Below, in pieces: positions 18,709 through 36,535 of a stretch of 64,000 nt of DNA. The stretch covers positions 3,534,001-3,598,000 of the forward strand of contig NZ_CP018620.1 in NCBI RefSeq assembly GCF_001908275.1, read 5' to 3'. The notes under the pieces were generated by a model, which made no database searches, was not told the origin of the DNA, and saw nothing but the letters and a program-made list of their open reading frames with translations. Source of the stretch: Paenibacillus xylanexedens. Its GTDB lineage: Bacteria; Bacillota; Bacilli; Paenibacillales; Paenibacillaceae. The translations under genes were made by a program, and so were the position numbers. Positions within the stretch are counted from its first letter, which is position 1; each line of letters opens with the position of its first letter.

Positions 18709-18915
18709 ATGGATTATTTTGTAGTAAATAGTCACAAAAAACAATAAAGATATCGCTTTATTTTCCATAAATGTGTTATTATGTTGGTGTCGGACGAAGA
18801 ATTCATTTGTTTGATCGATAGAGAGAGGAGGCACGTATTCTCGAATCATTCAATCTGTATGCATAGATTAACTGCACTGCTTGTTAAAAATAATAGAATA
18901 AGCGGAGGTATGGTT

Positions 18916-20103
18916 ATGTTCAAAAAATGGAAGAAATTTGGCATCAGCAGCTTGGCACTGGTATTAGTGGCTGCGGTGGCCTTTACCGGATGGAGTGCTA
19001 AGGCGTCTGCAGCAGATGCTTCGCAAATTGTAGCTGAGATGGGTGCGGGATGGAATCTGGGCAATCAGCTGGAAGCAGCGGTGAACGGTACACCGAATGA
19101 GACAGCTTGGGGCAATCCTACGGTAACTCCAGAGTTAATCAAAAAGGTAAAAGCGGCAGGCTTCAAATCCATTCGTATTCCCGTTTCCTATTTGAATAAC
19201 ATTGGAAGCGCTCCCAATTATACAATTAATGCGGCATGGCTGAATCGAATTCAGCAAGTCGTGGATTATGCGTACAATGAAGGTCTGTATGTGATCATCA
19301 ATATTCATGGTGATGGGTATAATTCCGTACAGGGTGGATGGCTGCTCGTGAATGGTGACAATCAGACTGCCATTAAGGAAAAATATAAGAAAGTGTGGCA
19401 GCAAATTGCTACTAAGTTTAGCAACTACAATGACCGTCTTATTTTCGAATCCATGAACGAAGTATTCGATGGTAACTATGGCAATCCAAACTCGGCCTAT
19501 TACGCCAATCTGAACGCATACAACCAAATCTTCGTGGATACGGTTCGTCAGACTGGAGGTAACAATAATGCCAGATGGTTGCTGATTCCAGGCTGGAATA
19601 CCAATATTGACTACACTGTTGGTAATTATGGCTTTGCTCTTCCAACAGATAATTACAGATCCTCAGTTATTCCTAGTTCGCAGAAGAGAATCATGATCTC
19701 AGCACACTATTACTCTCCGTGGGATTTTGCAGGTGAGGAAAACGGCAATATCACACAGTGGGGTGCAACTTCTACGAACCCTGCCAAAAAGTCTACATGG
19801 GGCCAAGAGGATTATCTTGAATCGCAGTTTAAGTCCATGTACGACAAATTTGTTACTCAGGGCTATCCTGTAGTGATTGGTGAGTTTGGCTCCATTGATA
19901 AAACGTCCTACGATTCCAGCAACAATGTCTATCGTGCTGCTTACGCCAAAGCAGTTACAGCAAAAGCTAAAAAATACAAAATGGTTCCTGTTTATTGGGA
20001 TAACGGGCATAACGGTCAACATGGATTCGCATTGTTTAACCGTTCAAACAAAACCGTGACGCAGCAAAATATCATTAATGCGATCATGCAAGGTATGCAA
20101 TAG
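18916..20103 (+). CDS. Secreted GH5 endo-beta-1,4-glucanase (cellulase)
   Basis: 395-residue secreted cellulase. The signal peptide (KKWKKFGISSLALVLVAAVAFT, cleavage near ASA/AD) is followed by a single GH5 domain with GAGWNLGNQLEA, the acid/base Glu in ESMNEVFD (about residue 181) and the nucleophile in VIGEFGS (about 321). It has no carbohydrate-binding module. The pattern is close to single-domain Paenibacillus polymyxa cellulases. The open frame starts further upstream, but ATG 18916 is correctly spaced from GCGGAGG and begins the signal peptide. Confidence 0.95.
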   Translation: MFKKWKKFGISSLALVLVAAVAFTGWSAKASAADASQIVAEMGAGWNLGNQLEAAVNGTPNETAWGNPTVTPELIKKVKAAGFKSIRIPVSYLNNIGSAPNYTINAAWLNRIQQVVDYAYNEGLYVIINIHGDGYNSVQGGWLLVNGDNQTAIKEKYKKVWQQIATKFSNYNDRLIFESMNEVFDGNYGNPNSAYYANLNAYNQIFVDTVRQTGGNNNARWLLIPGWNTNIDYTVGNYGFALPTDNYRSSVIPSSQKRIMISAHYYSPWDFAGEENGNITQWGATSTNPAKKSTWGQEDYLESQFKSMYDKFVTQGYPVVIGEFGSIDKTSYDSSNNVYRAAYAKAVTAKAKKYKMVPVYWDNGHNGQHGFALFNRSNKTVTQQNIINAIMQGMQ

Positions 20104-22148: not shown

Positions 22149-22217
22149 AACAATACAGCAATATTGTTTGGATTAGATCGAAATAACTGTGATACAATTC
22201 ATTGTAAAGCGCTATCA
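22149..22217 (+). promoter_or_regulatory. Operator-like inverted repeat, -10 element and cre-like box
   Basis: AACAATA-CAGCAA-TATTGTT (22149-22168) is a perfect 7-base inverted repeat. TACAAT at 22193-22198 could be a -10 element, and GTAAAGCGCTATCA at 22204-22217 matches 12 of 14 cre positions. The arrangement precedes the AraC-led carbohydrate operon and suggests autoregulation plus catabolite repression. No convincing -35 at 17 bases. Confidence 0.45.
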
Positions 22218-22273
22218 TTGTAAATTATTAAACTATATTGCTTTTTATATTCTGGGAAGGGAGATCTTTACTG

Positions 22274-23155
22274 ATGCTAACCATACACACCCCGACGAAT
22301 ATTGCTTTGCAGGAAAATGAAGTTTATGTGCGATCAGAAGCAGATAATTTTCAGGATGAATGGCCTGTTCATACGCATAATGGGTATGAGATACATTATT
22401 TTATTCAAGGAGATGCAACCTTTTTAATCGGTGACCGAATATACAAGCCGCTGCCTGGAGATATGTTTATATTCAGAGGCGGTGTGCCCCACCGAATCAA
22501 TCCTTCAAGAGAAATCGTGTACAAGCGAAGTTTTGTCAATTTCACGGAATTATTGCTTTTGGACATGCTTGCTGTCAGTCAGTTGGAGAATCTGATGTCC
22601 ATATTCCGTCATCCCAATGGGTTATTGGTGCATTGGCCCCCGGAGGAGCGTGAGCATATCACAGCTATATTTAAGGGGATCAAGGAGGAGATGGGGGCAG
22701 GAAATACAGGGTACAAAACAATGGTCAAATTAAGTCTTACCCAATTGCTACTGCGGATTTATAGGAAAACGACTAGTGAGCAATCTGCCAATCCTATTTT
22801 ATGTTCTTCTCAAAAGCAAACAAGCGTAAGCCGGGTTCTTCATTATTTAAACCAGAACTACACGGAGAATGTTTCTTTGGATGAGTTGTCTAAAACACTC
22901 CATTTGAATAAATACTACATTTGTCATTCTTTTAAAGAAACGACGGGATATACCATAAGCAATTATGTAATACGGAAAAGAGTTGCAGAGGCCAAAAAAT
23001 TATTGCTGTCTACGGATGCACCGATTTTGTTGATATCAGAGACACTAGGCTTTAACACACCTGTATATTTTAGCAGGGCCTTTAAACAATATGTGGGTGT
23101 ATCACCACAGTTATTCCGTAAAAGTGAATTGCTCAACGAAGCCAAAATTCATTAG
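22274..23155 (+). CDS. AraC family transcriptional regulator with cupin sensor domain
   Basis: 293-residue regulator. The N-terminal cupin has VHTHNGYEIHYFIQGDATFLIGDRIY and PGDMFIFRGGVPHRI. The C-terminal double helix-turn-helix reads NVSLDELSKTLHLNKYYICHSFKETTG and IGFNTPVYFSRAFKQYVGVSP (with L before GFN). ATG 22274 follows GAAGGGAGA; the frame is open to 22238. It heads the operon and lies 22 bases before the binding-protein gene, so it most likely controls its own operon on sensing the imported sugar. Confidence 0.92.
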   Translation: MLTIHTPTNIALQENEVYVRSEADNFQDEWPVHTHNGYEIHYFIQGDATFLIGDRIYKPLPGDMFIFRGGVPHRINPSREIVYKRSFVNFTELLLLDMLAVSQLENLMSIFRHPNGLLVHWPPEEREHITAIFKGIKEEMGAGNTGYKTMVKLSLTQLLLRIYRKTTSEQSANPILCSSQKQTSVSRVLHYLNQNYTENVSLDELSKTLHLNKYYICHSFKETTGYTISNYVIRKRVAEAKKLLLSTDAPILLISETLGFNTPVYFSRAFKQYVGVSPQLFRKSELLNEAKIH

Positions 23156-23177
23156 AACCTTCCAAGGAGATGTTGAT

Positions 23178-24449
23178 ATGACAAAAAGAACAACGTTTAA
23201 GCTCATCACTAGCATGGTATTGGTCATGTTACTCATCGTATTGACTGCTTGCGGAAATTCAGGTACCAATGCTAATCCAAAACAAACAACCCTGGATTTC
23301 CTGTGGTTCTCTGACGGAAAAGAAGGAGAAGTCATCAAGGAAATCATTAAAGAGTATGAGCAGACCAATACCAAGGTTAAAATCAACCTGATTGAAGTTG
23401 GCTTCAAGGATATCCAAACCAAATTAAAAACAATGTTATCCGGTGGAAAGCCACCTGCACTGAGCCGGGTCACGGATACTGGATCATTTGCTAATCAGGC
23501 GGTTGATCTGACACCTTACGTGGACAATGCGGACCAATTCGAGGATCAATTTATTGACTCACTTAAACCTTATTATGTTATTAATGACAAGCTGGTAGCG
23601 GCGCCTATGGATGTTACAGCGAATGGGCTTATTTATAACAAAACCTTATTTGATAAAGCGGGCGTCAAAGTACCGACCTCTCCTGACCAGGTATGGACGT
23701 GGGATGAATACACAGCTGCGTTAAAAGAGGTTATGGATAAAGGCGGAGCACGTTATGGCATGGTATGGGATGTCACACCGCATAGATGGTCCACTCTTTT
23801 GTATCAGAATGGCGGAAGCATCTTAACAGAGGATGGCACCGCAGCAGCGATTAACAGTGAAGCCGGAATTCGTAGCATGGAGCAGTTCAAGCAGCTTCAT
23901 CAAGAAGGGATCATGCCCGAATCCGTATGGCTCGGAGGGGAAAATCCGAACAACCTGTTCCGTTCCGGGACGGTGGCTACCCACTGGGCTGGCAACTGGA
24001 TGATCAGCAATTACAAGGATATCACTGATTTTGAATGGGGAGTCACCTATATGCCAAAAGGAACACAACGTTCTTCAGTACCAGGCGGGAAGTTTCTGAT
24101 GGCATTCAAAGGCAGCGGATATGAGCAGGAGGCGGCCGAATTTATTGAATACTTAACGTCCAAAGAAGTGAATTCAAAATATAACCAAGAATCATTGTTT
24201 ATGAGTCCACGGAAGGACAGCTCTGTATTGAATTATGAATTCGGCAAGGAGATGTTTGAAATTTTCGCGGATGAACTGAAGAACAGTTCGCCTCTTGCAG
24301 CTAATGACTGGTCCAGACAGACCATTATATCCAAAATTTCAACGGACCTGAAAAATAATATTGTTGAGGTTCTATCCGATAAGGCAACTCCGCAGGAGGC
24401 ATTGGATCGAACTGCCAAACTGATTAACGAGGCTATTGGCAGTCAATAA
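23178..24449 (+). CDS. Carbohydrate ABC transporter substrate-binding lipoprotein (UgpB-type)
   Basis: 423-residue extracellular lipoprotein of the SBP_bac_1 (oligosaccharide) class. The signal ends in the lipobox VLTAC. Domain strings include TLDFLWFSDGKEGEVIKEIIKEYEQ, the ligand-region GLIYNKTLFDKAGVKVP, VWTWDEYTAAL, and WAGNWMISNY. ATG 23178 follows AAGGAGATG. The context (GH105 and the 851-residue protein downstream) suggests uronic-acid-containing oligosaccharides as ligand. That is inference. Confidence 0.93.
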   Translation: MTKRTTFKLITSMVLVMLLIVLTACGNSGTNANPKQTTLDFLWFSDGKEGEVIKEIIKEYEQTNTKVKINLIEVGFKDIQTKLKTMLSGGKPPALSRVTDTGSFANQAVDLTPYVDNADQFEDQFIDSLKPYYVINDKLVAAPMDVTANGLIYNKTLFDKAGVKVPTSPDQVWTWDEYTAALKEVMDKGGARYGMVWDVTPHRWSTLLYQNGGSILTEDGTAAAINSEAGIRSMEQFKQLHQEGIMPESVWLGGENPNNLFRSGTVATHWAGNWMISNYKDITDFEWGVTYMPKGTQRSSVPGGKFLMAFKGSGYEQEAAEFIEYLTSKEVNSKYNQESLFMSPRKDSSVLNYEFGKEMFEIFADELKNSSPLAANDWSRQTIISKISTDLKNNIVEVLSDKATPQEALDRTAKLINEAIGSQ

Positions 24450-24451
24450 AC

Positions 24452-24508
24452 GTAAAGCGCTTTGGTTAATTCGTATACGGGGGCTTACCGATTCCTGTGA
24501 AGCCTCCC
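24452..24508 (+). promoter_or_regulatory. cre-like box and hairpin between binding protein and permease genes
   Basis: GTAAAGCGCTTTGG (24452-24465) is cre-like. GGGGGCTT (24479-24486) pairs with AAGCCTCC (24500-24507) with no T-run after it. The hairpin probably lowers permease expression relative to the binding protein or protects the upstream mRNA. Confidence 0.45.
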
Positions 24509-24540
24509 TTTCGAATAACGCATAAGGAAGGGGCAAGCAG

Positions 24541-25446
24541 ATGAGTGAAGGACAACGATTAAACAAAAATACGCTAGCAAAACAGAACAGGAAGCTCGTT
24601 ATTGCTCCTTATCTGTTTATACTACCCAACCTCCTGATCTTTGGAACTTTTATCGTATTTCCCTCTTTATTGGGCCTCTATTATTCCTTCCATGTCTATG
24701 ATGGATTGAACCCAATGAAGTTCAACGGGCTGGATAATTATATCAAAATTATAGGGGATCGGGAATTTTGGTCGACCATCGGACGAACGGGGATTTATGC
24801 AGCGATTGTTGTCCCGCTAATATATGCAGCAGCGTTAGGCATTGCTTTGCTGCTTGCGCGCGAGATTAGAATGCGCGGGTTCTTCAGGGCCGTATTTTAC
24901 TGGCCTACCATGATTTCTTACATTATCGTAGGATTGACCTGGAAGTGGATTTTCGGAGATTCATTTGGCATTTTGAATCATCTGTTAACCGTGGTTGGTG
25001 TGGAACCTGTTGGTTTTTTAACCTCTTCCTTTTGGGCAAATACGGCTGTAATCATCGCGACAGTATGGTCACGTGCAGGCTTTTTCATGGTCATTTTTAT
25101 CGCGGGTTTGCAGGCTATACCTACGGATTATTATGAGGCTGCCCGCTTGGACGGGGCAACGGGAATAAAGGTGTTTCGATATATTACGCTCCCGTTGTTG
25201 AAGCCCACAAGCTTGCTTGTTGTTATGCTGACTCTGATTGACGCGTTCAAAGCATTTCCACTTATGTTTGCGCTTACAGGTGGTGGTCCGGGCAAAGATA
25301 CTACCTATATTGTTCAATATATTTATGAGATTGGCTTTAACAGACAGGAGCTCGGTCTGGCCAGTGCGATGTCGGTGATACTGTTTATCCTTATTGGTGG
25401 ATTCTCGGCTCTGCAATTCCGTCTATCGAAAGGAGGGGCTACGTAA
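24541..25446 (+). CDS. Carbohydrate ABC transporter permease (MalF/UgpA-type)
   Basis: 301 residues, six hydrophobic segments, BPD_transp_1 fold. The EAA loop that docks on the ATPase reads YYEAARLDGATGIKVFRYITLPLL. ATG 24541 is preceded by AAGGAAGGGG. It overlaps the next permease by one base. No ATPase gene is in the operon; a shared MsmX-type ATPase encoded elsewhere is the usual solution for these transporters. Confidence 0.94.
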   Translation: MSEGQRLNKNTLAKQNRKLVIAPYLFILPNLLIFGTFIVFPSLLGLYYSFHVYDGLNPMKFNGLDNYIKIIGDREFWSTIGRTGIYAAIVVPLIYAAALGIALLLAREIRMRGFFRAVFYWPTMISYIIVGLTWKWIFGDSFGILNHLLTVVGVEPVGFLTSSFWANTAVIIATVWSRAGFFMVIFIAGLQAIPTDYYEAARLDGATGIKVFRYITLPLLKPTSLLVVMLTLIDAFKAFPLMFALTGGGPGKDTTYIVQYIYEIGFNRQELGLASAMSVILFILIGGFSALQFRLSKGGAT

Positions 25447-26270
25447 TGGTAATGAAGCCTATGGTCAAAATCTTCATCTACAGTCTGTTAAGTGTTGCCG
25501 CAGTGGTGTGGCTCCTGCCTGTCCTGTGGGTCGTGATTTCTTCTCTAAAAACGAATAGCGATCTGTACAGCTTTCCTCCCAAGTTATGGCCGCAGCCAAT
25601 CACCTTCGAGCATTTCAAGGAGGCATTCAGTAAAGGCGATTTTGGCTTGTATTTTATGAATAGTACGATCGTAACTGTAAGCTCAACGCTGCTACTGTTA
25701 TTGATTAACTCCATGGCAGGTTTTGCACTCGCGAAATATCGCTTCCGCGGAAGCGCGATCATATTAATTGCTTTTGTCTCAACACTCATGATTCCGATTG
25801 AGGTAATTATGATCCCTATATTCAAAGTGCTGAGTGCACTGGGGTTGTATAATAGCCTACTCGCGATTATTATCCCGCCAGCAGCAACCCCAACAGGTGT
25901 GTTCCTTATGCGGCAGTATTTGTTGTCCGTACCGGACGAGTTGTTGGAAGCTGCCCGGATGGATGGAGCGGGCGAATGGAAAATTTACTGGAGCATTATT
26001 CTTCCGATAGCGAAGCCGATTCTTGCGGTGCTCGCAATCTTCTCCTTCATGTGGAGATGGGATGATTTTGTATGGCCGTTAATTGCGATTAGTGATCCAT
26101 CGAAATATACGATTCAGCTTGCGCTCTCTAATTTTATTGGTGAATACAACGTGGATTGGGGAAGTTTGCTTGCGATGTCCGTCATCACGATGCTTCCGGT
26201 ACTGATTGTTTTTATGGTTTTCCAGCGGTATTTTGTCAGCGGTATGATTACTTCAGGAATGAAAGGATGA
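25446..26270 (+). CDS. Carbohydrate ABC transporter permease (MalG/UgpE-type)
   Basis: 274-residue partner permease, six membrane segments. The EAA motif is LEAARMDGAGEWKIYWSIILPIAKP. The start overlaps the upstream stop codon (TAATG), and AGGAGGGG lies within the end of the upstream gene. It pairs with the MalF-type subunit to form the channel. Confidence 0.94.
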   Translation: MVMKPMVKIFIYSLLSVAAVVWLLPVLWVVISSLKTNSDLYSFPPKLWPQPITFEHFKEAFSKGDFGLYFMNSTIVTVSSTLLLLLINSMAGFALAKYRFRGSAIILIAFVSTLMIPIEVIMIPIFKVLSALGLYNSLLAIIIPPAATPTGVFLMRQYLLSVPDELLEAARMDGAGEWKIYWSIILPIAKPILAVLAIFSFMWRWDDFVWPLIAISDPSKYTIQLALSNFIGEYNVDWGSLLAMSVITMLPVLIVFMVFQRYFVSGMITSGMKG

Positions 26271-26275
26271 GTTGA

Positions 26276-28831
26276 ATGTCAGATACCACCCGGAGTGGGA
26301 TGGATACCTTGAATTATAAACCTATGAAATTAGGTCACAATCAGGTCATTAATCATTGGATGATCAGCGGCATATATACAAAGCCTGTTGCCTTTGTTCC
26401 AACAACGATGGAGGGAGATATTAATGATTGGCTTATCGATGGTTTTGCCATTCATGAGAATCCATGCAGAAAGGAATTTGTAGAACATAGGAGAACGCAG
26501 CCTGTGAACCGTTTTTTTGATCAATGGAGCGAGTTTCCTAGCCCGGGAGACGATTTCGTTGGAGAAGAGAACGGAATGCCTTGGGCACTGTATTCTCCTT
26601 GGAATAATCCACGGGTGGAGCAATCAGGATTTTGGTTTGTACCGACACATCTGCGCAGTTACGCGGCGACAAGACTCATTTCTCCGACTGCTCATACTGC
26701 TTCTTTGCGGATTAAGACCTATGGCAGTCTGACGTTGTGGGTGAATGGGGAAATGGTAACGGATTTTGCGCCACTCATGCGTAACAAGGAGCAGGAAATC
26801 GTAATTAAAGCTGAACTTGTAGCTGGAATCAATGAGATCTATGCCTGCTGGGAGGATTTGGCTGAGCGGGATACGATGTATGCTTTTGCGGTGGAATATC
26901 TGGGAGACGAGGAATTGGTGATTTCCCTGCCTATTGCTCCTCATTTGGCGGAGTCTGTAAAATCCGCAGAGGAAGCCCTCGAACAGGCTTATTTTCCTTC
27001 GGATCTCTTCAGAGGTGAGCAGATTAAGCTCAAGCTGCCGCTTCCCTTACCGGACATCGTTAGAGAGGTTGATATTCAGTATGGCAATTTTTTTGACGGT
27101 ACCGAAAATAAGACGATACACATCGCCGAAAAGGAAACGGACTTGGTCCTGGCACATACGAATCAACTCGGTCATCATTACGTATATTTCACGCTGGCCA
27201 TTTCAGTTTCAAATGTTGTACTAACCAAGAAGTTTGGCTGCCAATCCTATGATACGAGCTATGATGAGGCAGCTCAGCAAGCTGCGGATATTGAAGCCCG
27301 CAAATCCCTAGCTCTGCAATGCATTGCCGAGAAGGGCAGCCCTAATATCCATAAGGCCATCGCCATGCTCAAAACAGGAGGCAATCTGCAAGAAGCGGAG
27401 AACATTTTGCTTGAGGGTGTGGAAGGGATTGAGCAACGGAAGGATTGCAGTGACTTCTATCTGGTGGGGCTGTTCCGTCTTTGGAGAGATGAGCGAAATA
27501 GCGGTCTGTTCAGTGAATCGTTCTGGGATCGGGTGAAAGCAAGCATTCTGGGCTATCGGTATTGGATAGATGAACCTGGCGATGATGTAATGTGGTTCTT
27601 CAGTGAGAATCATGCCTTGTTGTTCCATACCAATGAACTGTTAGCCGGACAGCTGTTTGGGGATGAAATGTTCAGCAACAGTGGTGAATCCGGTGAAGTA
27701 CACCGTCAAAAAGCAGAGCAGAGGCTTGCATTATGGTTTGAGCGCTTTTTGGATGAAGGATTGGCAGAATGGAATTCAAGTGCATACATTCCGATTGATG
27801 CGGTTGGGTTGTTGCATATCTATGAATTTGCCCATAATGAACAGCTCAGACAGCAAGCCAAAAAGGCAATGGACCTGTTATTCTATTATATTACCGTTCA
27901 GATGCATCAAGGCGTCTTGTCCACAACGTTTGGGCGCAGTTATGAGAAGGAACTGCTGGGTGGTTATGCAGCGGGAACCACTTCAATGTGCTGGATCGCT
28001 TATGGCGTTGGCAATGTAAACAATTATTCAATAAGCAATGTTGCCTTGAGTTTATCGGATTACAGTCCTCCAGCAGCATATCAGGAGCATCTGTTGCTCG
28101 GGGACAATCAGCAATTGGTGTTCGCCAATCAGCAGGGCAAGGGAGGTTACGCCAAGCTCTATCATTGTCGGACCAGGGAATACTCCTTATCCTCAATCAT
28201 TCGCTTCCGCCCAGGCAAGCCAGGTTATCAGGAGCATGTCCAGCATTTATCTCTGTCACCTGAGGCGCTGATCTGGGTGAATCATCCGGCAGAAATATAC
28301 AAGCACGGGGATGGTCGACCTTGCTTCTGGGCTGGGAATGGGATATTGCCCGATGTTGTTCAGCATGAGGGGATCGCTTTGATGATGTTTGATATTCCTG
28401 CGGATAACAACTCGGACTGGACACATGCTTATTTTCCTACCCACTCCTTCACGGAATGGGTAAGGCATGAGAACTGGAATTTTGCTCGTTTGGATAAGGG
28501 TTATGCAGCTATATATGCGGCCAACGGGACGAGTATGGAGAGCAACGGGGTGACAAGAGAACGTGAGCTTATTTCACCTGGCTTGCGTAACGCCTGGATT
28601 ATAAGAGCAGGAAGCGAACAGCAATTCGGGTCATTTGAAGCTTTTATCAAGCAAGTTCGTTCTGCAAACCCGCAATTCGATAATCAAGCTTTAACTCTCA
28701 CTCTAACAGACCCGGTATATGGTCCAATTCAATGGGGAATGAACAAGCCTTTTCTTATTAAAGAAGAGGAAATTATACACGAAGGTTATGGAGTGAAGGG
28801 ACAACTTAAGTTAATGGACATCGAGCGCTGA
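26276..28831 (+). CDS. Large cytoplasmic protein of unknown family, possible carbohydrate-active enzyme
   Basis: 851 residues, no signal peptide and no membrane helix, so it is cytoplasmic. Three regions can be made out: a beta-rich N-terminal part (to about 230) with a jelly-roll-like SLRIKTYGSLTLWVNGEMV stretch; a helical middle (about 320-620) with conserved-looking motifs WFFSENHALLFHT (about 441), EWNSSAYIPID and TFGRSYEKELLGG (about 551); and a beta-rich C-terminal part. An alpha/alpha-toroid followed by a beta-sandwich is the layout of several polysaccharide lyase families, and Asn-His, Tyr and Arg are typical lyase residues. I do not recognise the family. The adjacent GH105 gene supports action on uronic-acid glycans. 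It starts five bases after the permease stop. Confidence 0.8.
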   Translation: MSDTTRSGMDTLNYKPMKLGHNQVINHWMISGIYTKPVAFVPTTMEGDINDWLIDGFAIHENPCRKEFVEHRRTQPVNRFFDQWSEFPSPGDDFVGEENGMPWALYSPWNNPRVEQSGFWFVPTHLRSYAATRLISPTAHTASLRIKTYGSLTLWVNGEMVTDFAPLMRNKEQEIVIKAELVAGINEIYACWEDLAERDTMYAFAVEYLGDEELVISLPIAPHLAESVKSAEEALEQAYFPSDLFRGEQIKLKLPLPLPDIVREVDIQYGNFFDGTENKTIHIAEKETDLVLAHTNQLGHHYVYFTLAISVSNVVLTKKFGCQSYDTSYDEAAQQAADIEARKSLALQCIAEKGSPNIHKAIAMLKTGGNLQEAENILLEGVEGIEQRKDCSDFYLVGLFRLWRDERNSGLFSESFWDRVKASILGYRYWIDEPGDDVMWFFSENHALLFHTNELLAGQLFGDEMFSNSGESGEVHRQKAEQRLALWFERFLDEGLAEWNSSAYIPIDAVGLLHIYEFAHNEQLRQQAKKAMDLLFYYITVQMHQGVLSTTFGRSYEKELLGGYAAGTTSMCWIAYGVGNVNNYSISNVALSLSDYSPPAAYQEHLLLGDNQQLVFANQQGKGGYAKLYHCRTREYSLSSIIRFRPGKPGYQEHVQHLSLSPEALIWVNHPAEIYKHGDGRPCFWAGNGILPDVVQHEGIALMMFDIPADNNSDWTHAYFPTHSFTEWVRHENWNFARLDKGYAAIYAANGTSMESNGVTRERELISPGLRNAWIIRAGSEQQFGSFEAFIKQVRSANPQFDNQALTLTLTDPVYGPIQWGMNKPFLIKEEEIIHEGYGVKGQLKLMDIER

Positions 28832-28866
28832 ATCGTATGCAAGAAACCAAGGGAGTGATAACCAAC

Positions 28867-29937
28867 ATGCCGAATCAAATGGTGTTGCAGGAGAGAATAA
28901 GCAAGGTATCCCAAGCGATGGAGTCTATGAAAAACACAAGCATCAATGAACAGTTTCCCATCGGACTAATCGACATACATCTATGGGAATGGCCGCAAGG
29001 TGTTGGTCTGTATGGCTTGCTTCAGCTCCATGAGGCAACGAAAGATCCTAAAGTGCTGGAATTTCTGGAATCATGGTACAATGCAAGGCTGATGGAAGGA
29101 TTACCAGAAAAAAATGTGAACACCTGCGCTCCTCTCCTTACTTTGATCTCATTATGCGAGCTGACCGGAAACAAGGAGTACGAACAGGTCTGTGAGGAGT
29201 GGAGCAGTTGGATCATGGATGGACTGCTGCGAACCGGAGATGGTGCGTTTCAGCATATGATCACGGGAGACGCCAATGATGGTCAAATTCTGATTGATAC
29301 CCTGTTTATGACGGTGCTATTTTTGGCCAAGGCAGGGGTATACTTCAAGAAACCCGACATGGTGGAAGAAGCCAAACGACAGTTCCTTGTGCATATCAAA
29401 TATCTATATAACAAGAAAACCGGATTGTTCTATCATGGTTGGGATTTCAATGAAAATCATAACTATGGTGCTGTTCATTGGGGAAGAGGCAATGCATGGT
29501 ATACGGCGGGAGTTATGGATTTCCTGAATATCATTCCGATCGAAGACGGGCTAAAGGCCTATCTGTTGGATACAGTAACCGCTCAAGTCAGAGCACTGAG
29601 CAAGCTTCAAGGTGAGGATGGCATGTGGCACACTGTGCTGGATGATCCAACCTCTTACAAAGAAACCTCGGCAACGGCAGCGATTGGATACGGCATTCTT
29701 AAGGGAATCCGGTATGGATACCTGGATGAATCCTATCGACAGAATGGCTTGAGTGCGCTTGAAGCGGTGTTGAAACATATTGATGATCACGGAGTTGTAC
29801 AGCAGGTGTCCTATGGTACACCTGTGGGGCAGGATGCTCAGTTTTATAAAGATATAGCGATCAGTCCGATGGGTTATGGACAAGCACTTACGTTGTTTAT
29901 CCTGATTGAGGGCTTGCGGGTTCCAACCGCCGAATAG
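28867..29937 (+). CDS. GH105 unsaturated rhamnogalacturonyl/glucuronyl hydrolase
   Basis: 356-residue cytoplasmic (alpha/alpha)6-barrel enzyme that removes 4,5-unsaturated uronic acid from the non-reducing end of lyase products. It is YteR-like: the catalytic Asp in ILIDTLFM, and the substrate-site motifs FYHGWDF and HWGRGNAWYTAG. ETSATAAIGYGILKG and SPMGYGQA are also family-typical. ATG 28867 has GGGAG about 11 bases upstream; the frame is open to ATG 28837. Last gene of the operon. Its product chemistry implies that a lyase supplies the substrate. Confidence 0.92.
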   Translation: MPNQMVLQERISKVSQAMESMKNTSINEQFPIGLIDIHLWEWPQGVGLYGLLQLHEATKDPKVLEFLESWYNARLMEGLPEKNVNTCAPLLTLISLCELTGNKEYEQVCEEWSSWIMDGLLRTGDGAFQHMITGDANDGQILIDTLFMTVLFLAKAGVYFKKPDMVEEAKRQFLVHIKYLYNKKTGLFYHGWDFNENHNYGAVHWGRGNAWYTAGVMDFLNIIPIEDGLKAYLLDTVTAQVRALSKLQGEDGMWHTVLDDPTSYKETSATAAIGYGILKGIRYGYLDESYRQNGLSALEAVLKHIDDHGVVQQVSYGTPVGQDAQFYKDIAISPMGYGQALTLFILIEGLRVPTAE

Positions 29938-29962
29938 AATAAGGCAGACTTGTACGGAGGAT

Positions 29963-29995
29963 GGGGGATACAGTTTCCTGTATCCTCCTTTTTGT
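29963..29995 (+). terminator. Rho-independent terminator of the AraC-GH105 operon
   Basis: GGATACAG pairs with CTGTATCC around TTTC, extended by GGAGG/CCTCC and followed by TTTTTG. Confidence 0.85.
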
Positions 29996-30650: not shown

Positions 30651-32927
30651 TTAAGTTTTGCCTGTCAACCTCGGCTCCCCATAGGCCCTAATCTCGATTA
30701 ACTCCGCGTACTTGCTTCCATTGGTGGCATCCATGTTAACTCTAAGTGCCTGTGAATACACAGGTGTAGCCAGGGTATGAATGACTTTTCTTTTGCGGTT
30801 TTCCGTTACATTTACAATCTCGATCCATTCCCCAGACCGACTCAATACCTCCACCCGATAATCACGCACCAGCTCAGGCATCACACAGAATGTTGTGTGA
30901 TGGTGATGTAAATTTACCAGATCCTCGTTCACATCATCATTAAACGTCAAGTGCAACTCAGCCAAGGTTTGTGGCTCTTCCCATGTCAGTTGCACCCATT
31001 CAGGATTGCCAGACTGCATCGGCTGCGACATCCACTGTTGCGGCCCACCGTATGGGCGATGATAACCGTTGATCGTGTTGTCCGATGAATAGGCCGAAGT
31101 CTCAGAGAGGGTACGACAGCAGAATGGCTGACGCGCTAACCCCTGCATGGACCATAATACGACAGGCTGATCCGTTGCATGATCCTCCAGATTTTTGGAC
31201 ACGTGGTTTTCTTCTGTTTTGAAGAAGATTAGCACCCCGCTGTGTGCTTCTGTCGAATGGTAGAGTGAGACTGCTTTATTGGAGCGGATGATTATAAAAG
31301 CATTCTGCAGTTCTTCCGGTCGCCATTCGAGCGGAAGCTTCACCCACTGCGCAGTTCCTGTTGTAACGTTAACAGTCGCCGTAACTTGTAACGAATGCGG
31401 GACGTAGTTCTCCTTACGCCCCGTATCCCACAGCTCTACCGTCAGCGCGGTATCGCTGGATGCATCCAGCAGTAGCTCCAGGCCGCTGAGCACTGGATGC
31501 ACAGGCAGCAGCAGGGCGACATCTGTACCCAGCGGGTACGTCTCGCCAGGCTGCTCAAGGGCGATGCCCGTCAGCGTGCTGGAGGCTGTAACCTGGGCAC
31601 GCCGGGCCAGATCCAGCTCATCGTGGCTGCGCACCCCGATGATGGAAGCGTCCTGCCGCAGCAACGTCTGCTGCAGGACCGCCAGATGCCTCGCGTGCAG
31701 TTCGCGCGGCGATACCCCCATGGACGCGCAGAGCGCCGCGCCCGTACCCGCGGCTTCGCCGATGACCGCGCATGTTGCCATGACGCGCGTTGTGCCGAAG
31801 GCGACATGTGATGCACTGATGTCGCGCCCGGCCATGAGCATATTCCGCACATTTGCGGAATACAGCGAGCGGAACGGCACGTGATATACGCCATCGGCAT
31901 GCATATGCTTCGAGCCACTCGCTTCGGCGTACATGCCCTGCGGGGGATGCAGGTCAATGGACCAGCCGCCAAAAGCAACGGCATCCGGGAACTCCCGCTG
32001 GCTGATAATATCATTCTGGGTGAGCACATAGTCACCCGTGAAGCGACGGTACTCCCTTTTGCCAGGCAGAGAACCAATCCACTCCAGCGTCATATGATCT
32101 GCATCAAACTTGCCGGAGTTCTTGATATAGTCCCAGATCCCGTAGATCACGGACCACAGTTCATCACGGATCAGCTCATTGTCATGAACGGTGTCATGTT
32201 CACCGCCCCATTCAATCCACCAATAATGACAACCGGAATCCCCGCTGCGAATGACCCGGCGAATCGGAATGCTGGTCTGTGTAATATCCTTGGCAAAAGA
32301 AGGCGGGATATAACGGACAGGCGCACCAGCATCCTTGGTATAAAAGAGAAGTGTACTGCCCAGCGTGATCTGATCAGCCACCTCTGGTGCCCACTCTTCG
32401 CCATATTCGCTGCGGGCTTCCCGACCGAGTGCAAACTGGGCTCCAGCCAGAAAGCCGACCAATCCATCGCCCGTACAGTCCAGATAGATCTGACTTTCGA
32501 ATCGGATTTTGCGCTCAGAACCCATCATCCATCCGGTAACGGAGGTGATCATGCGTTCATCTCCATCCCCAGTGGCCTCGACTTCATGTACATCCGTGTT
32601 CAGGTACAGGCTAATGTTGGATTCAGCTCGAACGGCTTCCAGGATGATCAAGTCCCAGAGATAAGGATTGCCTTCCGGGTTGCGGTACTGGTTCTCTATA
32701 AACAATTCCCCCATAATACCCGTTTCCCGGGCATAACGGTTAATCCCGTGGGCGGTGGCACCGCACACCCAGACCCGAACCTCGCTGCTGGAATTGCCGC
32801 CAAGCACGGGGCGGTTCTGCACGAGCGCCACCTGCTGCCCCATGCGGGCAGCGGCTATCGCGGCGCATACACCAGCAAGTCCTCCGCCGATGACGGTGAT
32901 GTCGTATTGTACATGCTCTTGTTTCAT
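30651..32927 (-). CDS. FAD-dependent oxidoreductase (FAD_oxidored family) with C-terminal beta domain
   Basis: 758-residue cytoplasmic flavoprotein. The FAD-binding fold is at the N-terminus (ITVIGGGLAGVCAAIAAARMG), followed by LGGNSSSEVRVWVCGATAHG, LDCTGDGLVG, and near the end of the core AGRDISASHVAFGTTRVMATCAVIGEAAGTGAA. These match the PF12831 family found in many carbohydrate loci. The last 250 residues look like one or two discoidin-type beta-sandwiches (ending RVNMDATNGSKYAELIEIRAYGEP). ATG 32927 follows AAGGAGG; a GTG at 32960 is also in frame. Divergent from an AraC gene that probably controls it. Substrate unknown. Confidence 0.88.
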   Translation of the reverse strand: MKQEHVQYDITVIGGGLAGVCAAIAAARMGQQVALVQNRPVLGGNSSSEVRVWVCGATAHGINRYARETGIMGELFIENQYRNPEGNPYLWDLIILEAVRAESNISLYLNTDVHEVEATGDGDERMITSVTGWMMGSERKIRFESQIYLDCTGDGLVGFLAGAQFALGREARSEYGEEWAPEVADQITLGSTLLFYTKDAGAPVRYIPPSFAKDITQTSIPIRRVIRSGDSGCHYWWIEWGGEHDTVHDNELIRDELWSVIYGIWDYIKNSGKFDADHMTLEWIGSLPGKREYRRFTGDYVLTQNDIISQREFPDAVAFGGWSIDLHPPQGMYAEASGSKHMHADGVYHVPFRSLYSANVRNMLMAGRDISASHVAFGTTRVMATCAVIGEAAGTGAALCASMGVSPRELHARHLAVLQQTLLRQDASIIGVRSHDELDLARRAQVTASSTLTGIALEQPGETYPLGTDVALLLPVHPVLSGLELLLDASSDTALTVELWDTGRKENYVPHSLQVTATVNVTTGTAQWVKLPLEWRPEELQNAFIIIRSNKAVSLYHSTEAHSGVLIFFKTEENHVSKNLEDHATDQPVVLWSMQGLARQPFCCRTLSETSAYSSDNTINGYHRPYGGPQQWMSQPMQSGNPEWVQLTWEEPQTLAELHLTFNDDVNEDLVNLHHHHTTFCVMPELVRDYRVEVLSRSGEWIEIVNVTENRKRKVIHTLATPVYSQALRVNMDATNGSKYAELIEIRAYGEPRLTGKT

Positions 32928-33073
32928 ATCTGTGACCTCCTTAACTGAAGTTAGATCCACCTTGACTCCAACTGCATATCTATAATTTCATCTTAGATTT
33001 ATATATTCACTTTTTAAATGCACTATACTATCATCAAACATATACTTTATTTCACAGAAAGGGTGGTCAAGTC

Positions 33074-33838: not shown

Positions 33839-34201
33839 GCTGAAAGAAGTGAGCAGAAAGCTTTGAAGACTACTTTAAAGACAACTTTTGAAGCCAGCGG
33901 AGCACCAGGTATACACCTTCGTTACGGGTTGTCCAGATTATGGAGGAGCTGGTGTGAATGAGTGCAGAAGCAACGGATACTACATTTCTAACCGAAATTA
34001 GAGGGGGAAGTACATTTCAGTTGTAGATCATAGACAATTTATACTATAATTTACCATATGGAGTCCTTATCCGAACGTATGCCCCCCCGTATCCGTTTGA
34101 ATGAGGACTCTGATTTTATAACTAAAACCAAGGAGGGGGATATAGCCTTAGCCTTTAAAATAAGGAATTCATCCTAATATTCGATAAAGGAGATGGAAGC
34201 G
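33839..34201 (+). promoter_or_regulatory. Leader region of GH10 xylanase with a candidate promoter
   Basis: 363 bases without a gene. TTGTAG at 34021-34026 and TATAAT at 34045-34050 are 18 bases apart and make a plausible sigma-A promoter. The first 180 bases after the AraC gene show nothing I recognise. A purine-rich AAGGAGGGGG near 34130 does not precede an open frame of any length. Confidence 0.5.
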
Positions 34202-36535
34202 ATGAGAAAAATGATATTTTTGAAAGCGCTTAAATTTGTTTTGATGATAACTTTGTTAGTTCCTTTGTATTGGGCGGCTCCATCTGTCCATGCGGCAGAA
34301 GGGGAGAATACCTTGATTCTGAGTCATGATTTTGAAGATGGCACGGTCCAGAGCTGGAGCGGACGCGGTGAAGTAGAAACGCTTCATGCAAGCGCCGTTG
34401 CAGCTCGTACCGGAGATTATGGACTGGAAGTGAGCGGGCGGGCTATGACATGGCATGGGCCAGCGCTGGATGTGACAGAACTTTTGGAGGTGGGACAGAC
34501 GTATGTGTTTACTGGCTGGGTGAAGCTTCCGGCGGGAGCGTCCAGCACAAACCTCAATATGTCTTTACAGCGTACCCTGCCAGATACAACACATTATGAA
34601 AATTTAACATTCGGTACCGCATCCGCAGGCGGATGGACCAAGCTTACTGCACAGTTTAAAATGCTGGAACCAGCGAATCAGTTATCGGTTTATTTTGAAG
34701 TGCCAGACCGTGCCACAGCTTCTTTTTATGTGGATGATTTCCGATTGGAGAAGCTGCCAGATCTCGGACCCATTGTGATCGAAGAAGACATTCCTTCCCT
34801 ACAGGATGCTTTTGCGGGCAAGTTTCGAATTGGGACGGCCTTCACGAACAATGAACTGCTGACCGAACCGGACAAGCAACTGCTTACGAAGCATTTTGAT
34901 AGTCTGACACCAGGCAATGTTCTGAAATGGGACAGTACCGAGCCGCAAGAGGGTATGTATAATTTCAGCGGGTCGGATGCCGCAGTCGCTTTTGCAGCAG
35001 CGAACGGACAAGAGATACGCGGGCATACCCTCGTTTGGCATACACAAACTCCGGATTGGGTATTTCACGATGCCAACGGCAATCTGGTGAGCAAAACGGT
35101 GCTGTATGAACGGATGCAGCAGCATATTGAGACGGTAATGGAGCGTTATCAAGGCCAGATCTACGCTTGGGACGTTGTGAATGAAGTCATTGATGCCTCC
35201 GAGCCGGATGGCCTGCGGCGCAGTCTGTGGTACCAGATTGCCGGGGAAGAATATATTGAGAAAGCATTTGAATTCGCCCATGCAGCCGACCCGGATGCCA
35301 AGTTGTTTATTAATGACTACAATACCCATGAGCCGGCCAAAAGCCAGGCCCTCTACAATCTGATCACTCGCCTTCAAGCCAAGGGTGTGCCTATTGACGG
35401 AGTCGGCCATCAAACACACATCAGCCTCTTTTATCCAACCCTTTCGGAAATTGAGAGTTCCATTGTCAAATTTAAGGCGCTGGGCCTCGAAACACATATT
35501 ACTGAGCTTGATGTAAGTGTATATTCCAATGATTCGCAATCTTATGATATCTTCCCGGAAGAACTGAAGACACAGCAGGCAGCGCTGTACAAGTCCCTGT
35601 TCCAGATCTTCCTGAGGCATACGGACACAGTCAAAAATGTTACCTTGTGGGGCAAGGATGATGCCAATACCTGGCTACGAACCTTCCCAGTCGCCCGCAA
35701 CAACTGGCCGCTGCTTTTCGACGAGCGACTCCAGTCCAAGCCAGCCTATTGGTCCGTATTAGAGACGGTCCAGGTCGAGGCAGTACCAGCCGCTCCGCAG
35801 AATCTGACCGCCACTGCGGTTAGCGACAACAGCATCAATCTAAGCTGGAGTGCATCTGCAAGTGCGACCTCCTATACGGTAAACAGGTCGCTGACAGCAG
35901 CCGGACCGTATACATCTGTGGCCGCTGTATCGGGAACAAGCTATAAGGATATGGCGGTATCTGCTGGAACCACCTACTACTATGTGGTGAATGCGGTTAA
36001 CAGCGTTGGGAAGAGTGTGAACTCCGTTCAAGCTTCCGCAAAGGTCCAGGGTGGAGGGCCGCCAGAGCCTGCTGGCAATCTGACTCTAGCCTATCGTGCA
36101 GGGGATACAAATCTGCTCGATAACCAAATGAAGCCGCAGTTTGTCATTCACAACAACGGTACCTCCGCAGTTAGCCTGAATGAACTGACAATTCGTTACT
36201 GGTATACAGTGGACGGGGAGAAACAACAATCCTTTTTCTGTGATTATGCACAGCTTGGAGGCAGTCAGATCAGCGGCAGCATAGTGAAACTGCCTGCACC
36301 TGTTCCTGGAGCGGACCATTATCTGGAACTGAAGTTCGGTACCGGAGCAGGCGTGATCCCGGTCGGAGGAACTTCTGGGGAGATACATACCCGGTTGCAC
36401 AAAGCAGACTGGTCCAATTACAGCGAAGGGGATGATTATTCCTTTAACCCGCTGCAGACCTCTTTTGCCGATTGGACCAAGGTAACTCTTTACCGGAACG
36501 GCGAGCTTGTCTGGGGAGTGGAGCCTATATCCTAA
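34202..36535 (+). CDS. Secreted modular xylanase, CBM22-GH10-FnIII-CBM3
   Basis: 777-residue secreted endo-1,4-beta-xylanase. The signal peptide ends near Ala31 (VHA/AEG). Residues about 36-185 form a CBM22-like xylan-binding module (DFEDGTVQSW...FYVDDFRLEKL). GH10 spans about 195-530, with the acid/base Glu in WDVVNEVID (about 328) and the nucleophile in HITELDVS (about 435). An FnIII domain (APQNLTATAVSDNSINLSW) follows, then a C-terminal CBM3 (GNLTLAYRAGDTNLLDNQMKPQF) for crystalline cellulose. ATG 34202 is nine bases from AAAGGAG; ATG 34193 abuts it. A cre-like box lies inside codons 7-11. Confidence 0.96.
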   Translation: MRKMIFLKALKFVLMITLLVPLYWAAPSVHAAEGENTLILSHDFEDGTVQSWSGRGEVETLHASAVAARTGDYGLEVSGRAMTWHGPALDVTELLEVGQTYVFTGWVKLPAGASSTNLNMSLQRTLPDTTHYENLTFGTASAGGWTKLTAQFKMLEPANQLSVYFEVPDRATASFYVDDFRLEKLPDLGPIVIEEDIPSLQDAFAGKFRIGTAFTNNELLTEPDKQLLTKHFDSLTPGNVLKWDSTEPQEGMYNFSGSDAAVAFAAANGQEIRGHTLVWHTQTPDWVFHDANGNLVSKTVLYERMQQHIETVMERYQGQIYAWDVVNEVIDASEPDGLRRSLWYQIAGEEYIEKAFEFAHAADPDAKLFINDYNTHEPAKSQALYNLITRLQAKGVPIDGVGHQTHISLFYPTLSEIESSIVKFKALGLETHITELDVSVYSNDSQSYDIFPEELKTQQAALYKSLFQIFLRHTDTVKNVTLWGKDDANTWLRTFPVARNNWPLLFDERLQSKPAYWSVLETVQVEAVPAAPQNLTATAVSDNSINLSWSASASATSYTVNRSLTAAGPYTSVAAVSGTSYKDMAVSAGTTYYYVVNAVNSVGKSVNSVQASAKVQGGGPPEPAGNLTLAYRAGDTNLLDNQMKPQFVIHNNGTSAVSLNELTIRYWYTVDGEKQQSFFCDYAQLGGSQISGSIVKLPAPVPGADHYLELKFGTGAGVIPVGGTSGEIHTRLHKADWSNYSEGDDYSFNPLQTSFADWTKVTLYRNGELVWGVEPIS
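34221..34234 (+). promoter_or_regulatory. cre-like box inside the xylanase signal-peptide codons
   Basis: TGAAAGCGCTTAAA matches 13 of 14 cre positions. It lies downstream of the start codon, where bound CcpA would act as a roadblock to elongation. Confidence 0.6.

What the first reader, a model, noticed from the sequence alone, without database searches (positions are those of the whole stretch)
22149..29995. Carbohydrate locus centred on an 851-residue cytoplasmic protein of no recognised family
The operon (AraC, binding lipoprotein, two permeases, large protein, GH105) ends with an enzyme that acts only on unsaturated uronic acids made by a polysaccharide lyase, yet no known lyase is encoded. 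The 851-residue protein has a helical middle followed by a beta-rich C-terminus and motifs WFFSENH, SSAYIPID and TFGRSYEK. That layout resembles alpha/alpha-toroid lyases. It may be a new intracellular oligosaccharide lyase or glycosidase family. Motifs and operon are seen; the GH105 chemistry is established; the lyase role is inference.
Basis: partly seen in the sequence, partly recalled or inferred. Interest (0 to 1): 0.85.

Follow-up and report, generated by a model that had tools for sequence, protein, structure and literature searches.

The report
Likely new intracellular uronate-lyase family
An unnamed 851-residue bacterial protein is predicted to fold like enzymes that cut acidic sugar chains, and its gene sits directly before the gene of the enzyme that would finish the job, so it likely founds a new family of sugar-cutting enzymes that work inside the cell.

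Summary
Window 22238-29937 is a tight operon (AraC, binding lipoprotein, two permeases, an 851-aa protein "P851", GH105) ending at a terminator-like hairpin. P851 matches no Pfam or NCBIfam family and no PDB sequence, but has hundreds of relatives; the names shown for listed ones are hypothetical, uncharacterized or PA14-domain.

A confident AlphaFold2 model (pLDDT 92.6; catalytic part 93.3) is an alpha/alpha toroid plus beta-sandwich behind a GH2-like jelly roll. For the catalytic part, structural matches 1-40 (many repeat entries) are toroid uronate lyases or dermatan sulfate epimerase. Invariant Asn-His and Tyr and a near-invariant His have lyase-like order and spacing, but spacing alone is weak.

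GH105 lies within 300 bp in 57 of 79 loci from several phyla, is fused to P851 in one protein, and occurs as a close copy in exactly the 21 of 75 genus genomes that carry P851. KduI, which consumes unsaturated uronate, is near it in 4 of 79.

Verdict: P851 is probably the missing intracellular lyase and founder of a new family. Substrate, activity and 3D clustering of the residues were not tested; GH105 is absent from 17 of 79 loci.

The parts
22238..23155 (+). AraC-type regulator (start codon uncertain)
   Evidence: PF12833 2.5e-18, PF02311 6.7e-11
23178..24449 (+). binding lipoprotein of a sugar ABC importer (ORF from 23091; LTAC lipobox)
   Evidence: PF01547 3.5e-37; N-terminus; nearest solved relative 5f7v Lmo0181, E 5e-35
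24541..25446 (+). ABC permease 1
   Evidence: PF00528 1e-16
25446..26270 (+). ABC permease 2
   Evidence: PF00528 7.2e-24
26276..28831 (+). P851, predicted intracellular uronate lyase of an unnamed family
26333..26911 (+). P851 residues 20-212: jelly roll like the N-terminal domain of GH2 enzymes
27251..28828 (+). P851 residues 326-851: alpha/alpha toroid plus beta-sandwich, predicted catalytic part
   Evidence: AF2 pLDDT 93.3
27593..27613 (+). WFFSENH, residues 440-446; N445-H446 proposed as carboxylate neutraliser
   Evidence: 314 of 314 identical at 445 and 446
27758..27787 (+). residues 495-504, G-L-A-E-W-N-S-S-A-Y; Y504 proposed catalytic Tyr
   Evidence: Y504 and E498 in 314 of 314, S501 in 307, G495 in 248; compare the Tyr motif of a PL12-like protein
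27926..27949 (+). TFGRSYEK, residues 551-558 (R554 invariant)
   Evidence: R554 in 314 of 314
28235..28285 (+). residues 654-670: H654 and H670, the two candidates for the beta-sandwich catalytic His
   Evidence: H654 302 of 314, H670 280 of 314
28837..29937 (+). GH88/GH105-family hydrolase, the predicted next step
   Evidence: PF07470 1.2e-88; D154 aligns with YteR D143, present in 60 of 60
29963..29988 (+). terminator-like hairpin ending the operon
   Evidence: 11-pair stem followed by TTTTTG

Best explanation
P851 is likely an intracellular uronate lyase of a new family: with a predicted alpha/alpha-toroid plus beta-sandwich fold, it would cut an imported oligosaccharide by beta-elimination on the non-reducing side of a 4-linked uronic acid and hand the unsaturated product to the GH105 enzyme encoded right behind it. 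Shown: the operon, the absence of a named family in the libraries searched, invariant Asn445-His446 and Tyr504 with a near-invariant His654 or His670, and a partner gene that is adjacent in 57 of 79 loci and fused in one protein. Predicted: the fold and its resemblance to PL8/12/15/17/21/35/39 lyases. Inferred: import by the ABC transporter; neutralisation of the carboxylate by Asn445/His446; general acid/base roles of Tyr504 and of His654 or His670; hydrolysis of the unsaturated uronyl residue by GH105; opening to DHU; and entry into the KduI/KduD pathway, whose genes the genome carries elsewhere. The substrate is unknown.
Confidence: 0.75

Rival explanations
1. P851 is a glycoside hydrolase with a toroid fold that removes a capping sugar, while GH105 works on unsaturated oligosaccharides made outside the cell by other lyases.
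For: Toroid-only matches to GH116 and an alpha-1,6-mannanase appear lower in the list; full-length Foldseek rows are mostly GH2-type glycosidases; the genome has other lyase-like proteins; some loci hold GH31, GH38, GH95, GH3 or GH2 enzymes, so mixed oligosaccharides are plausible.
Against: For the catalytic part, the lyase matches in ranks 1-40 cover toroid plus beta-sandwich (385-439 residues) and outrank the hydrolases shown, which cover 212-236. An invariant Asn-His plus Tyr resembles lyases rather than a pair of carboxylates, although invariant acids (D390, D393, E498, E764) do exist.
Confidence: 0.13
2. P851 is a C5-epimerase of uronic acids, like dermatan sulfate epimerase 1, which shares the fold and active-site residues with the lyases.
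Against: Frequent pairing and one fusion with GH105, and KduI/KduD nearby in some loci, fit production of unsaturated uronate. An epimerase acting on imported oligosaccharides would have no obvious role. The second Tyr of the epimerase has no conserved counterpart at its spacing.
Confidence: 0.07
3. The module has nothing to do with unsaturated uronates: the GH105 subgroup is a beta-galactosidase and P851 a helper or binding protein for it.
For: NCBIfam equivalog BglB fits above its cut-off; YteR D88 is replaced by Asn in 60 of 60; P851 has a GH2-like N-terminal domain and some relatives carry PA14.
Against: KduI in 4 of 79 loci; residue of the YteR catalytic Asp kept in 60 of 60; many invariant polar residues in the P851 toroid and sandwich suggest an active site. 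No paper behind the BglB label turned up in two listings.
Confidence: 0.05

Closest known systems
Toroid plus beta-sandwich uronate lyases of PL12, PL15, PL17, PL21, PL33, PL35, PL39 (heparinase II/III-like)
   Same: predicted two-domain fold; Asn/His then Tyr at similar spacing; G and S of the Tyr motif
   Different: no sequence or Pfam similarity; extra N-terminal GH2-like domain; no apparent export signal; often encoded with GH105; no second Tyr at the PL33 spacing
PL8 hyaluronate/chondroitin/xanthan lyases
   Same: fold, 4.9-6.1 A over about 408-439 residues
   Different: in PL8 1RWA the catalytic His lies 9 residues before the Tyr (His233/Tyr242); here Asn-His lies 58-59 before it; no profile match
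Intracellular PL8a + GH88 + GH38 xanthan system of Paenibacillus taichungensis (PMC12827396, passages seen)
   Same: works alike as its authors assume: a lyase without signal peptide acting on imported oligosaccharides, then GH88 removing glucuronic acid
   Different: different lyase family; GH38 seen beside P851 only in L074 and L076; substrate of P851 not shown
PL27 rhamnose-glucuronate lyase (PMC8377490, passages seen)
   Same: removes a capping sugar from glucuronate by beta-elimination
   Different: [quoted passage not shown] no PDB chain matched P851 by sequence beyond noise
Human dermatan sulfate epimerase 1
   Different: epimerase of a human biosynthetic pathway; no GH105 partner (recalled)

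Membership tests
PL12/15/17/21/35/39 (heparinase II/III-like) lyases | alpha/alpha toroid followed by antiparallel beta-sandwich | tested here: met
   models; matches (predicted structure)
PL12/15/17/21/35/39 (heparinase II/III-like) lyases | sequence match to PF07940, PF16889 or PF16332 | tested here: not met
   P851 gave only PMI_typeI_C at E 0.15 with a limit of 10; the same library finds one or more of these families in each of L086, L108, L116
PL12/15/17/21/35/39 (heparinase II/III-like) lyases | Asn/His - Tyr - His catalytic set in one cleft | tested here: inconclusive
   order, spacing and conservation fit, chance 11-22%; no coordinates to measure clustering
PL12/15/17/21/35/39 (heparinase II/III-like) lyases | beta-elimination activity | not testable with these tools
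   needs enzyme assay
PL8 | Lyase_8 sequence family (PF02278) | tested here: not met
   no Pfam match; no hhalign match to 7 fetched PL8 proteins
PL8 | toroid plus sandwich fold | tested here: met
   [not shown]
GH105 (partner gene, not P851) | Glyco_hydro_88 domain | tested here: met
   PF07470 297.9 bits, cut-off 26.6
GH105 (partner gene, not P851) | catalytic Asp (D143 of YteR; role recalled) | tested here: met
   aligned with D154; 60 of 60
GH105 (partner gene, not P851) | hydrolysis of unsaturated uronides | not testable with these tools
   NCBIfam names the subgroup beta-galactosidase
Dermatan sulfate epimerase-like | toroid plus sandwich fold | tested here: met
   [not shown]
Dermatan sulfate epimerase-like | C5 epimerisation without cleavage | not testable with these tools
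   needs assay

The most novel reading that the evidence does not exclude
P851 founds a new polysaccharide/oligosaccharide lyase family that carries out uronate elimination entirely in the cytoplasm on imported, still saturated oligosaccharides. With its GH105 partner, sometimes as one polypeptide, it forms a portable two-step 'eliminate then hydrolyse' module found in Bacillota, Spirochaetota and Alphaproteobacteria.
Probability: 0.6. Interest if true: 0.72.

Novelty: new variant of a known kind. Interest (0 to 1): 0.62.

Why it matters
GH88/GH105 genes with no lyase beside them leave a gap in glycan-utilisation loci such as this one. A cytoplasmic lyase family invisible to Pfam, NCBIfam and PDB sequence search would fill some of these gaps, add a family to the toroid-lyase superfamily, and give two directly testable enzymes per locus, one pair already fused in nature. 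It would also indicate that some soil and gut Bacillota import uronate oligosaccharides uncut and desaturate them inside.

Tried and rejected
Profile-profile comparison (hhalign) of P851 with fetched heparinase II/III-like and PL8 families and with GH105, GH31, GH95 and binding-protein controls gave nothing convincing. The best lyase stretch was 27 columns around the Asn-His motif of L123 (1.3-2.6% probability). GH105 itself scored highest (10-16%, 45 columns, E 0.0016-0.003 for one comparison), which I read as noise.

The spacing argument was tested by shuffling and is weak (11% with random placement, 22% with labels shuffled among conserved positions); it is kept only as consistent. Because H670 and H654 both fit the Tyr-to-His distance, I did not choose between them.

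The fold search against viral models gave 10 hits at E<=0.001, none named as a lyase. VIA-align only re-ranks Foldseek's list and shows 50 rows, so families missing from it, PL27 for one, are not excluded.

Substrate guesses were not adopted. Xanthan-like: GH38 in only 2 loci. Alpha-glucosyl-containing: GH31 in 16 of 79 loci, binding protein nearest to Lmo0181, GH31 models far below their cut-offs. Rhamnogalacturonan: one RGL11-like neighbour in L058. The TRAP binding protein in L075 matched many structures without a telling ligand.

Searches for earlier descriptions of this family (listings only) and on GH105 and its BglB label (listings only) found none in the held open-access library; CAZy/dbCAN and most subscription papers could not be searched.

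Full report
What is there. The window lies in a 7.1-Mb genome; the closest P851 copies in the species collection, 94-98% identical, are from Paenibacillus. Between 22238 and 29937 on the + strand lie AraC, a binding lipoprotein, two permeases, the 851-residue protein (P851, 26276-28831) and a GH88/GH105-family protein (28837-29937). The permeases overlap by 1 bp, P851 starts 5 bp after permease 2, and GH105 starts 5 bp after P851. A terminator-like hairpin follows at 29963.

P851 belongs to no family in the libraries searched. Pfam (limit E 10) and NCBIfam (limit E 1) give one noise match each. phmmer against all PDB chains gives nothing, and a profile of 89 relatives gives one noise hit. Relatives are plentiful: 582 proteins at E<=0.001 among 7,998 scored candidates (120 listed), and 305 among 7,994 with a profile of nine distant members (120 listed). 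The names shown in these lists are hypothetical, uncharacterized or PA14-domain protein. In one-genome-per-species contigs 163 stretches encode a relative, of which the best 80, 79 loci, were kept: Paenibacillaceae, Bacillaceae, Lachnospiraceae and other Clostridia, Halanaerobium, spirochaetes, Vagococcus and some Alphaproteobacteria. The contexts of the other stretches were not seen.

Active site. In 314 aligned sequences (proteins and locus translations of 750-900 aa, overlapping sets; others left out) N445, H446, E498, Y504, R554, R681 and H717 are invariant; H654 is present in 302 and H670 in 280. Table 4 of PMC12088678 (passage seen) lists catalytic and neutralising residues for PL8/12/15/17/21/23/35/39; the Asn/His-to-Tyr distance is 52-58 in PL12/15/17/21/35/39, here 58-59. 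Tyr504 to H654 is 150 residues and to H670 is 166, within the 130-166 of those families. A shuffling control shows that such a triple arises by chance in 11-22% of trials (limits 52-59 and 130-189), so this is consistent rather than probative. The Tyr motif (G at Tyr-9, kept in 248 of 314; S at Tyr-3, kept in 307) is shared with L109, a clear PL12 relative (E 2.6e-33 to heparinase III). The second Tyr reported for PL33 and DS-epi1 (passages of PMC11848413 and PMC8006597) has no conserved counterpart at that spacing.

Partner. By translated search GH105 lies within 300 bp of P851 in 57 of 79 loci, downstream on the same strand in 55 and upstream in 2, and somewhere in the locus in 62 of 79; among the 58 loci with at least 5 kb on both sides the figures are 46 and 48. 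In the 75 held genomes of the genus, full-length P851 occurs in 21 (6 more have only a weak partial match), and a GH105 of at least 72% identity occurs in exactly the same 21, matched ends at most 42 bp apart. GH105s of 45-48% identity occur in 6 genomes without P851 and as second copies in two with it (limit E 1e-60). P0070 (1161 aa) is a natural P851-GH105 fusion. The loci are related to one another, so these counts are not independent events; but the reversed order in alphaproteobacterial loci and the fusion are separate arrangements.

Pathway and place. GH105 keeps the residue aligned with the YteR catalytic Asp143 in 60 of 60 sequences; the residue aligned with YteR D88 is Asn in 60 of 60 (YteR roles recalled). 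KduI, which isomerises DHU (abstract of PMC12838403), is near P851 in 4 of 79 loci, typed by NCBIfam in L024, L075 and L076; KduD is typed in L075, while the neighbouring dehydrogenase of L076 types as gluconate 5-dehydrogenase. The window's genome has KduI and KduD about 0.9 kb apart at 6.72 Mb and seven PF07470 matches, one of them under the cut-off. By a crude hydropathy cut 0 of 81 P851 proteins have an export-like N-terminus, against 58 of 66 binding proteins, so import before cleavage is likely.

Reading. The simplest account is an oligosaccharide-specific lyase inside the cell: import, beta-elimination by P851, hydrolysis by GH105, then KduI/KduD. A precedent with a different lyase is the PL8a of Paenibacillus taichungensis, which its authors assume to act inside the cell with GH88 on xanthan oligosaccharides (PMC12827396, passages seen). 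P851 is not filed under PL8 or under any heparinase-like family, because the sequence tests were not met; it works like them in predicted fold and residue order. GH31 in 16 of 79 loci and occasional GH38, GH95, GH3 and GH2 neighbours suggest varied mixed oligosaccharides, so the substrate stays open. What would change my mind is listed under the refuting results.

Noticed in passing
L131 6126-7931 (also L132, L133): A protein of about 600 aa in 6 of 75 genus genomes matches P851 weakly (E 4e-8 to 2e-7); the L131 copy has altered motifs (TENQ, DSPTY, QARTY) and no Pfam family above its cut-off. Possibly a second unnamed toroid family.
   Followed up: partly
L058 649-12496: Eisenbergiella tayi carries three P851 paralogues in 12 kb with PHP-domain proteins, a binding protein and an RGL11_C-like protein, but no GH105 in the locus.
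   Followed up: partly
L027, L069, L073: Gracilibacillus/Salibacterium loci lack GH105; P851 is followed by a glucosamine-6-phosphate isomerase-like gene, with the importer and a ROK-family gene upstream.
   Followed up: no
window 30651-32960 (-): 769-aa FAD_oxidored (PF12831) protein, with sub-threshold F5/8-type C-terminal matches, opposite the operon; found near P851 only in four close Paenibacillus loci (L002, L003, L004, L007).
   Followed up: no
window 28837-29937: NCBIfam equivalog 'beta-galactosidase BglB' fits this GH105 above its cut-off; the basis of that label could not be found.
   Followed up: partly
window 18781-20103 and 34193-36535: A GH5 cellulase-family protein and a GH10 xylanase with CBM4_9 and CBM3 flank the region, separate from the operon.
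   Followed up: no
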